From positions 1 to 44,544 of the forward strand of contig JAGCNV010000095.1 in the NCBI GenBank assembly GCA_017645765.1: a DNA stretch of 44,544 nucleotides, given 5' to 3'. The notes below the pieces were generated by a model, which saw only the letters and a list, made by a program, of their open reading frames with translations, searched no databases and was not told the origin of the DNA. The DNA comes from a bacterium. GTDB taxonomy: Bacteria; UBP6; UBA1177. Every line of letters starts with the position of its first letter. Position 1 is the first letter of the stretch. This document shows, one piece after another, positions 4,466-6,807 of the stretch. The position numbers were made by a program, and so were the translations under genes.

Positions 4466-5221
4466 ATGAACGACTACTGCATCAAATACGGACTCAACGA
4501 AGAGCGCCTGCCGCAGCATGTTGCGATAATCATGGACGGCAACGGACGCTGGGCGAAAAAACGGCTCTGGAACAGACTGAAAGGGCATAGGGCCGGAGCA
4601 GACGCAGTTGACGCGGTAACGACTTTGTGCCGCGAAATCGGAGTCAAATATCTTACACTTTATGCTTTTTCGACTGAAAACTGGAACCGACCCGAAAGCG
4701 AAGTCTCAGGACTCATGGAACTTTTCAAAGAGTTTCTGGTATCGAAAAAGGGTCTTCTTATCGAAAAAAATATCCGTCTCAACATAATCGGAAGCAAAGA
4801 TAAATTTTCGCCGGAACTGCTCAAACTTATGAACGAAACTATTGCCGAAACAGAAAAATATGATCCGAAAATGACGCTTACGCTAGCTCTCAGCTACGGT
4901 TCACGTCAGGAGATAACTGCTGCGGTAAGAAAAATCGCTCAAAAAGTCGCGGCGCATGAGATAACTCCTGAAAATATCGATGAAAAACTGATTTCTGAAA
5001 GCCTTTACACATTCGATATGCCGGATCCAGATCTTGTAATCAGAACAAGCGGTGAATACAGGATTTCAAACTATCTTCTGTGGCAGATCGCATATTCCGA
5101 ATTTTATTTCACAGACACTTTGTGGCCTGATTTCAACAAAGACGAGTTCATCAAAGCCCTCCAAGACTTTGCCGGCAGGGAACGCCGCTTCGGAAAGACC
5201 GGCGACCAGGTCAAGAAGTAA
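4466..5221 (+). CDS. uppS: Isoprenyl (undecaprenyl diphosphate) synthase
   Basis: Cis-prenyltransferase of 251 residues that elongates farnesyl diphosphate with isopentenyl diphosphate to the C55 carrier used for peptidoglycan and O-antigen subunits. Diagnostic motifs are IIMDGNGRWAKKR with the catalytic Asp at 24, LTLYAFSTENWNRP, LALSYGSRQEI, and DLVIRTSGEYRISNYLLWQ followed by SEFYFTDTLWPDF. It is full length. It starts nine bases after the J-protein gene with AAGG upstream, and precedes the dcw cluster, which fits supply of the lipid carrier. After it, 168 A/T-rich bases lead to mraZ. Confidence 0.96.
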   Translation: MNDYCIKYGLNEERLPQHVAIIMDGNGRWAKKRLWNRLKGHRAGADAVDAVTTLCREIGVKYLTLYAFSTENWNRPESEVSGLMELFKEFLVSKKGLLIEKNIRLNIIGSKDKFSPELLKLMNETIAETEKYDPKMTLTLALSYGSRQEITAAVRKIAQKVAAHEITPENIDEKLISESLYTFDMPDPDLVIRTSGEYRISNYLLWQIAYSEFYFTDTLWPDFNKDEFIKALQDFAGRERRFGKTGDQVKK

Positions 5222-5326
5222 TTTAAGTCATTTTTATATTTCCATCGTTATTGCTGCATTTTTTTAAGTACAAAAAATCTCTTTAATTTCAGCTATATAG
5301 AAAAAAATAATATTTTTTTGAAAAAA

Positions 5327-5385
5327 GTGTTGCTTTTGTGGTGTGTTTGTGGTAACAGAGGGTTGTTTTGTGTTGTTCAGTGGGA
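5327..5385 (+). promoter_or_regulatory. Likely MraZ operator: six GTGKKR boxes at 10-11 base spacing
   Basis: Hexamers GTGTTG, GTGGTG, GTGGTA, GGGTTG, GTGTTG and GTGGGA start at 5327, 5338, 5349, 5360, 5370 and 5380, one per helical turn, directly before mraZ (5390). MraZ is known to bind short GTG/TGGG-type direct repeats with this kind of spacing before its own gene. The last box overlaps the mraZ ribosome binding site. No convincing -35/-10 pair was found in the upstream A/T-rich stretch, although TATATA at about 5294 is a candidate -10. Confidence 0.75.
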
Positions 5386-5389
5386 AAAG

Positions 5390-5887
5390 ATGTCAAATTT
5401 AGCAGATACATTTTACGGAAGAAAGGAATACAGAGTCGATCCGAAAGGAAGAATACCGCTTTCTACCGATTACTATTCAAAACTTGGGCTGAATGATGAA
5501 AATTCCACTATTATCATAACACGCTGTCCTTATAGAGATGAGAACTGCCTTGAAGTTTTTTCGGAAAGAGAGTGGGCTGAAGAGCAGAAGCTGATAAAAA
5601 ATATGGATGAAGGTCCTGTTAAAAAGTTTTTGCTCAAGAAATATGTCGGAAGTGCGGAATCTGTCTCGCTTGACTCTCAGAACAGAATAAGAATTCCTAA
5701 ATATATGATCGATTTCGCCGAAATAGACAAAGATGTCGTTTTTGTAGGCGAAATAACACGTCTCAAAATCTGGGCTAAGGAAAGACTCGAACAAATAGAA
5801 AATGATTCGGAAGTCAGCGACGAGCTCATAGACGAGGCAATGAACAAAGCCAAAAAACTTGTAGCGGAAAACAGAGGGGACGAATAA
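5390..5887 (+). CDS. mraZ: Transcriptional regulator MraZ
   Basis: A 165-residue product with two SpoVT/AbrB-like swapped-hairpin repeats: EYRVDPKGRIPLSTDYYSKL near the N-terminus and SVSLDSQNRIRIPKYMIDFAEI after residue 85. The D-x(2)-(G/N)R-I-x-(I/L)P pattern in both is the MraZ hallmark. The family forms rings that bind repeats before the dcw cluster and repress it. The start at 5390 is chosen by homology (MSNLADTFYGRKEY) and the GGGA before it; an ATG-like start at 5318 would run through the box array. The stop overlaps rsmH (TAATG). The C-terminal tail (residues 140-165) is highly charged. Confidence 0.95.
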   Translation: MSNLADTFYGRKEYRVDPKGRIPLSTDYYSKLGLNDENSTIIITRCPYRDENCLEVFSEREWAEEQKLIKNMDEGPVKKFLLKKYVGSAESVSLDSQNRIRIPKYMIDFAEIDKDVVFVGEITRLKIWAKERLEQIENDSEVSDELIDEAMNKAKKLVAENRGDE

Positions 5888-6807
5888 TGGATTTCCTTCA
5901 TGTTCCAGTCCTCTTTGACGAGGTATTGTCTTCTTTTGACAATAAACCGTCTGTTTTTGTTGACATGACTTCCGGCGGCGGCGGTCACGATGTCGGCATC
6001 CTCGAAAAATATCCGGATGTACGCGCCATCCTCATTGACAGAGATCAGGATGCGGTTGCTCATCTTAAGGAGAAATTCGCTTCTTTTCCGAATGTAACAG
6101 TGGTGAACGCTCCTTTCAGCGAAATTGATAAAGTTCTCTTTCTTCTGCAGATCCCGAAAGTCGACATTGTTTTTGCCGATTTGGGTGTCAGCAGTTTTCA
6201 GTTCGATACGCCGCACAGAGGTTTTTCGATGCAGAAAGACGGTCCGATGGATATGAGAATGGATAAAACCTCTTCCGTAACGGCACTGGAATTCATTAAA
6301 AATTCGACAGAAGGCGAACTCAGAAACATTTTGAGCCTTTATGCTCAGGAACGCGAGGCGGGAACGGTTGCGAGAACGCTGAAAAGATGCGCTGACGATG
6401 GAATGACGACGACTCTTCAGTTTGCTGATGAAATAAGAAAGGCGAAAAGGTACGCAAAAAAGGGGATCGATCCTTCAACACAGGTGTTTATGGCGATCCG
6501 TATGGCTGTGAACGATGAACTCGGTGAGCTAGAAACTGCGCTGAAGAAGGCGTTTCCTCTTCTTTCCGACAAAGGAATAATGGGAATTATCACTTTCCAT
6601 TCGACTGAAGACCGGATCGTGAAAAATTTTTTCCGCGACCGCAAAAACAAAGTTCCGTTCTATATCGACGAAAAAGACTCTGTTCCTTTTTGCGACGAGG
6701 CTTCCTTTGCAGTCGATATGATAACTCCGACAGATGATGAGTGTGCAAAAAATCCGCGTGCCAGAAGCGCGAAACTTAGAATATTGAAAAAGACCGTTTT
6801 TATATAA
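5887..6807 (+). CDS. rsmH: 16S rRNA (cytosine(1402)-N4)-methyltransferase RsmH
   Basis: The 306-residue enzyme methylates C1402 of 16S rRNA using S-adenosylmethionine. Seen motifs: HVPVLFDEVL at the N-terminus, VDMTSGGGGHDVGIL (SAM-binding glycine loop), DLGVSSFQFDTPHRGFSMQKDGPMDMRMD, TQVFMAIRMAVNDELGELE, IITFHSTEDRIVKNFF and the C-terminal NPRARSAKLRIL. Length and motif order match the family. It overlaps mraZ by one base and is followed after 17 bases by the ftsL-like gene, the usual dcw order. Confidence 0.96.
   Translation: MDFLHVPVLFDEVLSSFDNKPSVFVDMTSGGGGHDVGILEKYPDVRAILIDRDQDAVAHLKEKFASFPNVTVVNAPFSEIDKVLFLLQIPKVDIVFADLGVSSFQFDTPHRGFSMQKDGPMDMRMDKTSSVTALEFIKNSTEGELRNILSLYAQEREAGTVARTLKRCADDGMTTTLQFADEIRKAKRYAKKGIDPSTQVFMAIRMAVNDELGELETALKKAFPLLSDKGIMGIITFHSTEDRIVKNFFRDRKNKVPFYIDEKDSVPFCDEASFAVDMITPTDDECAKNPRARSAKLRILKKTVFI

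What the first reader, a model, noticed from the sequence alone, without database searches (positions are those of the whole stretch)
5327..5385. Six helically phased GTGKKR boxes before mraZ
Six hexamers begin at 5327, 5338, 5349, 5360, 5370 and 5380, so all face one side of the helix. Known MraZ operators have about three or four boxes; six is a long version, and the last one covers the mraZ SD, suggesting that MraZ binding could affect both transcription and ribosome access. The ring-shaped MraZ oligomer could contact many boxes in a row.
Basis: partly seen in the sequence, partly recalled or inferred. Interest (0 to 1): 0.58.

Follow-up and report, generated by a model that had tools for sequence, protein, structure and literature searches.

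The report
Four-box MraZ operator before mraZ
The repeated GTG motifs just before the cell-division regulator gene mraZ look like an ordinary self-regulation switch with a conserved core of four boxes, not six, although the mraZ gene next to it appears to be swapped unusually often between related rumen bacteria.

Summary
The repeats are real but overstated. Five, not six, exact GTGKKR hexamers precede mraZ; the one at 5360 is GGGTTG. In 23 mraZ upstream regions of the same (UBP6-like) order, four positions form the common frame: 0, +10, +20/21, +31 (window 5349, 5359, 5370, 5380). The first and last are exact GTGG in 23/23 and 20/23, the second in 12/23; the third is weak. The first core box supplies the TG of an inferred extended -10; the last ends 4 bp before the ATG. 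This is a standard MraZ operator, probably for autorepression of the dcw genes, like the 3-4-box operators of E. coli, B. cenocepacia and mycoplasmas. In 108 regions from elsewhere, three boxes are the norm, four common, five or six rare but present. Nothing supports control of ribosome access. Separate lead: within this genus mraZ is an island of divergence, apparently swapped between species (MraZ 50-65% identical where FtsI is 96-99%; MraZ 99-100% where FtsI is 80-84%), unlike 9 of 10 control genera.

The parts
5349..5354 (+). core MraZ box 1, GTGGTA; also supplies the TG of the inferred extended -10
   Evidence: GTGG exact in 23 of 23 aligned genomes (the alignment was anchored on this box)
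   Evidence: offset +10: GTGG exact in 12 of 23, at most one mismatch in 17 of 23, the window not among them
5370..5375 (+). core box 3 position, GTGTTG (weakly conserved)
   Evidence: offset +21: at most one mismatch to GTGG in 6 of 14 genus genomes; offset +20: 4 of 9 outer genomes
5380..5385 (+). core MraZ box 4, GTGGGA, ends 4 bp before the ATG
   Evidence: offset +31: GTGG exact in 20 of 23; best score of the six sites against a box matrix from other phyla
   Evidence: GTGT at -22 in 6 of 14 genus genomes and box-like in none of the 9 outer ones (6 of 23 in all)
   Evidence: GTGG exact at -11/-10 in 3 of 23 genomes (L001 = window, L003, L007); absent in L002 whose MraZ is 99% identical
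5330..5335 (+). inferred -35, TTGCTT
   Evidence: TTGCTT/TTGATT-like element 16-17 bp before the -10 in 21 of 23 genomes
5353..5358 (+). inferred -10, TAACAG, preceded by TGG (extended -10)
   Evidence: GTGGTA in 23 of 23 aligned genomes; the consensus scanner did not report a + strand promoter
5390..5887 (+). mraZ, 165 aa, regulator
   Evidence: PF02381 E 6.3e-17; model matches solved MraZ structures with Z about 19-21
5887..6807 (+). rsmH (mraW), next gene of the dcw cluster
   Evidence: PF01795 E 8.8e-81

Best explanation
The stretch 5327-5389 is the promoter and operator of the dcw cluster. A weak -35 (5330-5335) and an extended -10 (5350-5358) are overlapped, from the -10 downstream, by a four-position MraZ operator (5349, 5359, 5370, 5380), 31 bp from first to last box and in helical phase. 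The MraZ ring is inferred to bind the array and block RNA polymerase, giving negative autoregulation of mraZ and the genes behind it (rsmH, an ftsL-like gene, ftsI, murE, murF). The 5338 site is an optional extra box in phase in this lineage; the 5327 site is probably the edge of the -35. Shown: array, phase, conservation, gene identity. Inferred: promoter elements, start site, binding, repression.
For: MraZ family and gene order (17 of 17 aligned proteins are PF02381). Conserved register in 23 genomes: offsets 0, +10, +31 exact GTGG in 23, 12 and 20 of 23; promoter-like elements at fixed spacing in 21 of 23; ATG at +41 in 13 of 14 genus genomes. Phase beyond chance. Survey of 108 mraZ upstream regions of other phyla: 94 have at least two GTGG at 10-11-bp steps, most often three; strict three-or-more chains in 67 of 108 against 0 of 108 shuffles. 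Literature: (AAAGTGKN3)3 in mollicutes (PMC5282649, passages), four repeats over the start site in B. cenocepacia with gel shift (PMC7761207, passages), MraZ as repressor in M. genitalium (PMC8475190, passages). Fold matches to MraZ solved with promoter DNA. No other such array in the genome beyond the reversed-pattern control (4 hits against 3).
Against: Two of the four core positions are poor in the window itself (AGGGTT, GTGTTG) and score badly against the box matrix, though that matrix was built from exact GTGG sites and so penalises others by construction. The -10 TAACAG matches TATAAT in 3 of 6 positions and the scanner reports no + strand promoter here. The invariance of the first box may owe something to the promoter itself. 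No binding or expression data. MraZ has also been described as an activator in mycoplasmas (cited in PMC7761207).
Confidence: 0.86

Rival explanations
1. A true six-box (or five-box) extended operator in this lineage: the 5327 and 5338 sites are also bound, so the ring or a second ring covers the -35 and gives tighter repression.
For: All six positions are in phase. The window and L003 share GTGT at -22 and GTGG at -11; L008 and L009 have GTGT and GGGG there. Arrays of 5-6 exist elsewhere, e.g. L027, L079, L106, also with mixed 10/11-bp steps. In the window the extra 5338 box may make up for the degenerate 5359 box.
Against: The 5338 site is gone in L002 (MraZ 99% identical), L004 and L005; -11/-10 is box-like in only 9 of 23. 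The 5327 site is tied to the -35 sequence.
Confidence: 0.25
2. The upstream conservation is only core promoter (extended -10 TGTGGTAA and a -35) and the phased G/T motifs are by-products of a G/T-rich leader.
For: The most conserved box overlaps the -10. In shuffles of the G/T-rich 70 bp alone a phased chain of six or more appears in 15 of 20,000.
Against: The box at +31 is outside any promoter element and exact in 20 of 23; +10 is exact in 12 of 23. The same phased GTGG arrays occur before mraZ across phyla.
Confidence: 0.06
3. The last box acts at translation: MraZ, or structure of the leader, hides the mraZ ribosome site.
For: The last box ends 4 nt before the ATG and the ATG is at +41 in 13 of 14 genus genomes; in family members GTGGTGAC there gives a better anti-SD match (L015 -7.6, L017 -8.7 kcal/mol).
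Against: MraZ is a double-stranded-DNA binder (recalled; PDB promoter complexes); the window's SD duplex is weak (-4.2, against -8.2 for rsmH and -10.7 for murF, with an assumed canonical anti-SD). Dual use as box and ribosome site needs no regulation of translation.
Confidence: 0.04

Closest known systems
E. coli MraZ operator before mraZ (Eraso et al. 2014, seen only as cited in PMC7761207 and PMC8475190)
   Same: GTGG boxes in direct repeat at 10-bp steps just before mraZ (three exact plus GGGG in K-12); autoregulated dcw promoter
   Different: there downstream of the -10 (PMC7761207 passages); here the first box is inside the extended -10 and one step in the 31-bp core is 11 bp
Burkholderia cenocepacia PmraBc operator (PMC7761207, passages)
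   Same: four repeats at 10-bp period; MraZ binds the fragment that holds them in a gel shift
   Different: array downstream of the -10, over a start site 100 bp before the start codon; here it runs up to the ATG
Mollicute MraZ site (AAAGTGKN3)3 and the M. genitalium MraZ-promoter complexes 9r4j and 9sz7 ('4 box promoter', titles)
   Same: same box core and period; four-box length; same fold (Z 18.7-18.9)
   Different: about 30% identity over the aligned part; three of the window's boxes are preceded by TTT, not AAA

Membership tests
MraZ family (PF02381) | MraZ domains over Pfam's cut-off | tested here: met
   61.8 bits against a cut-off of 23, two stretches; 17 of 17 aligned relatives match
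MraZ family (PF02381) | DxxxR motif in each half (motif recalled, not from a call) | tested here: met
   D17, K19, G20, R21 and D95, N98, R99 invariant, Q97 nearly so, in 17 sequences
MraZ family (PF02381) | Fold of solved MraZ | tested here: met
   model pLDDT 90.9; 1n0e Z 20.6, 9qlg 20.2, 9sz7 18.9
MraZ operator | Direct repeats with GTGG/GTGK core at 10-11-bp steps before mraZ | tested here: met
   as a class
MraZ operator | Position just before the first dcw gene, rsmH next | tested here: met
MraZ operator | Overlap with the promoter or start site | tested here: inconclusive
   promoter elements inferred from conservation; scanner reports none on the + strand
MraZ operator | Bound by cognate MraZ and regulates the promoter | not testable with these tools
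   needs gel shift, footprint, reporter
   5360 is GGGTTG; -11 and -22 not conserved

The most novel reading that the evidence does not exclude
In this rumen genus mraZ behaves as an exchangeable allele module: divergent MraZ versions are swapped between species by recombination near the gene ends and kept diverse by some selection (for example phages, or incompatible mixed rings), while the DNA-reading segments and the GTGG operator code stay common, so that an incoming allele can still work on the resident promoter.
Probability: 0.45. Interest if true: 0.62.

Novelty: new member of a known kind. Interest (0 to 1): 0.33.

Why it matters
It extends the MraZ autoregulation circuit to an uncultured candidate phylum and shows, with 23 aligned genomes and a 108-region survey, that a helically phased 3-4-box array is the general rule, with a conserved 31-bp core here. 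The side result, if it holds on genomes that are not MAGs, would be an unexpected case of a core cell-division regulator being exchanged and diversified while its neighbours stay nearly identical.

Tried and rejected
Regulon search: GTGKN(6,7)GTGKN(6,7)GTGK in the whole genome gave 4 places against 3 for the reversed pattern; the three other places lie inside open frames of 120 aa or more, so no second MraZ target was found. The mraZ array itself also lies in a long open frame read upstream from mraZ, so that test does not by itself separate coding from non-coding.

Shine-Dalgarno: the genome's 16S end was not found, so a canonical anti-SD was assumed; one of the eight listed starts of the window (labelled dnaK?) was not at a start codon and is dropped. 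Distances from last box to start codon in the survey came from a loose start rule that gave many negative values; I do not use them.

Survey limits: 100 stretches chosen from the places printed (one search found MraZ in 255 of 319 genomes; its list of places was cut), 7 loci (L024-L030), and E. coli K-12. Mostly one genome per genus, but at least four pairs share a genus. 14 of 108 regions gave no array; some are cut by contig ends or were placed from the second domain only.

mraZ carried by viruses as the vehicle of exchange: a scan of viral contigs found 58 pattern matches, none a relative. Papers: (mraZ with allelic replacement, mosaic, horizontal gene transfer, recombination hotspot) showed nothing on mraZ exchange in the 12 of 76 papers listed; Eraso 2014 is not held and Fisunov 2016 was seen only as cited. 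Papers were seen as passages (a find in PMC5089854 gave no passage) and as search listings.

Control pairs: two of ten failed because a wrong frame was picked and were redone.

Full report
Observation. The intergenic region between uppS (ends 5221) and mraZ (ATG 5390) holds exact GTGKKR at 5327, 5338, 5349, 5370 and 5380. The claimed box at 5360 is GGGTTG. The phasing is real: steps of 10-11 bp, all within 51 degrees of one helical face at 10.5 bp per turn, and in 20,000 dinucleotide shuffles of 5222-5389 no chain of six with one mismatch allowed and no exact chain of three arose. In the harsher control, the 70 G/T-rich bases alone, chains of six or more arose 15 times in 20,000.

Who it is. 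The host lies in a candidate phylum whose named relatives include rumen MAGs labelled UBP6. 28 genomes of the phylum are held and 23 have MraZ; the five without are three genomes of one other family and two incomplete ones (72 and 65%). MraZ is PF02381, followed by rsmH, an FtsL-like small protein, ftsI, murE and murF (the names ftsL, ftsI, murE and murF are mine from the translations).

Conservation. I aligned the 23 upstream regions (window plus 22 relatives) on the box at 5349. GTGG stands at offset 0 in 23 of 23, at +10 in 12 of 23 (17 of 23 with one mismatch), at +31 in 20 of 23 (22 of 23 with one mismatch). A third, weak position is at +21 in the genus (6 of 14 with one mismatch, none exact) and +20 outside it (4 of 9). 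Upstream, -11 or -10 is box-like in 9 of 23 and exact in 3; off-phase pairs of offsets nearby reach 7 of 23, and 11 where the -35 TTG lies. At -22 GTGT occurs in 6 of 14 genus genomes. L002, whose MraZ is 99% identical, lacks the 5338 site.

Promoter. In 21 of 23 genomes a TTGCTT/TTGATT-like element lies 16 (9 genomes) or 17 (12 genomes) bp before a hexamer that follows TGG; L007 and L014 did not fit the rule. In the window: TTGCTT 5330-5335, 17 bp, TAACAG 5353-5358. This is an inference from conservation: TAACAG itself is a poor -10 and the consensus scan reports no + strand promoter. The first core box thus supplies the extended -10, and the array runs from the -10 to 4 bp before the ATG; the ATG lies at +41 in 13 of 14 genus genomes.

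Comparison with MraZ operators elsewhere. In 108 mraZ upstream regions of other phyla (100 stretches, 7 loci, E. coli K-12), 94 have at least two exact GTGG at 10-11-bp steps; chain lengths with one mismatch allowed are 2 in 10, 3 in 57, 4 in 21, 5 in 5 and 6 in 1, none in 14. Strict chains of three or more: 67 of 108 against 0 of 108 shuffled. A matrix from 66 of these regions scores the window sites 5380 (10.5), 5338 (4.6) and 5349 (4.2) high and 5327 (-0.4), 5370 (-5.3) and 5360 (-10.6) low, with the bias that the matrix was made of exact GTGG sites. So three boxes is the rule, four is common, five or six rare but not new. Mean steps rise from 10.0 in three-box chains to 10.2 in five-box chains (5 cases) and 10.4 in the single six-box one, as helical phase over a longer run would ask; the numbers are small.

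Mechanism. MraZ binding to such repeats and repression of mraZ and the genes behind it are described in other bacteria (passages of PMC8475190, PMC7761207, PMC5282649). PDB holds M. genitalium MraZ with its promoter and with a '4 box promoter' (titles), and the window's protein is predicted to have the same fold (pLDDT 90.9; Z 18.7-20.6). I conclude autorepression by occlusion of the -10 and start region. The ribosome-access idea has no support: the SD duplex at the last box is weak (-4.2 kcal/mol; the other six usable starts of the window run from -3.8 to -10.7).

Separate finding. In the 14 genus genomes MraZ identity is nearly uncoupled from that of its neighbours: correlation of pairwise identities 0.24 to RsmH, 0.32 to FtsI, 0.29 to MurE, against 0.84-0.95 among those three (murE was missing in one genome). 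L032 and L037: FtsI 99%, RsmH 92%, MraZ 50%. Window and L031: MraZ 99%, RsmH 87%, FtsI 84%. L037 and L038: MraZ 100%, FtsI 80%. The FtsI clade of window, L032, L033, L034 and L037 (100/100) is rejected by MraZ (p-AU 0.004), and the MraZ group window, L031, L032 by FtsI (p-AU 8e-65); RsmH rejects neither at 0.05. These groups were named after seeing the identities. In ten within-genus pairs of other lineages MraZ is at least as conserved as RsmH in nine (the exception 74 against 79%). The upstream flank of L032 is 96-99% identical to that of L037 and unlike the window's, while its mraZ and operator (93%) are the window's: a crossover near the -35. The window and L031 share the gene but not the operator (75%), so operator and gene do not always move together. 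The two segments with the DxxxR motifs are among the best conserved parts of MraZ (residues 1-30 and 91-120), which may let any allele use any operator. All these genomes are MAGs or look like MAGs by their titles, and chimeric assembly is the main doubt.

Noticed in passing
window 5390-5887; L031-L043: mraZ is an island of strong divergence and apparent exchange between species of the genus, flanked by nearly identical uppS, rsmH and ftsI; the reverse of control genera, where MraZ is usually the more conserved.
   Followed up: partly
L032 versus L037 and window, about 5042-6000 of L032: The upstream flank of mraZ in L032 is 96-99% identical to L037, but operator and mraZ match the window; a crossover appears to lie just before the -35.
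   Followed up: partly
window 4466-5221: uppS lies directly before the mraZ promoter in the window, L031, L033 and L034 but was not found beside mraZ in the other relatives, so the dcw promoter sits after different genes.
   Followed up: no
L027, L079, L106: Five- or six-box MraZ arrays with mixed 10- and 11-bp steps in other lineages.
   Followed up: no
genomes G025, G026, G027 (same phylum, other family): No MraZ found in three genomes 82-94% complete: possible loss of the regulator in that family.
   Followed up: no
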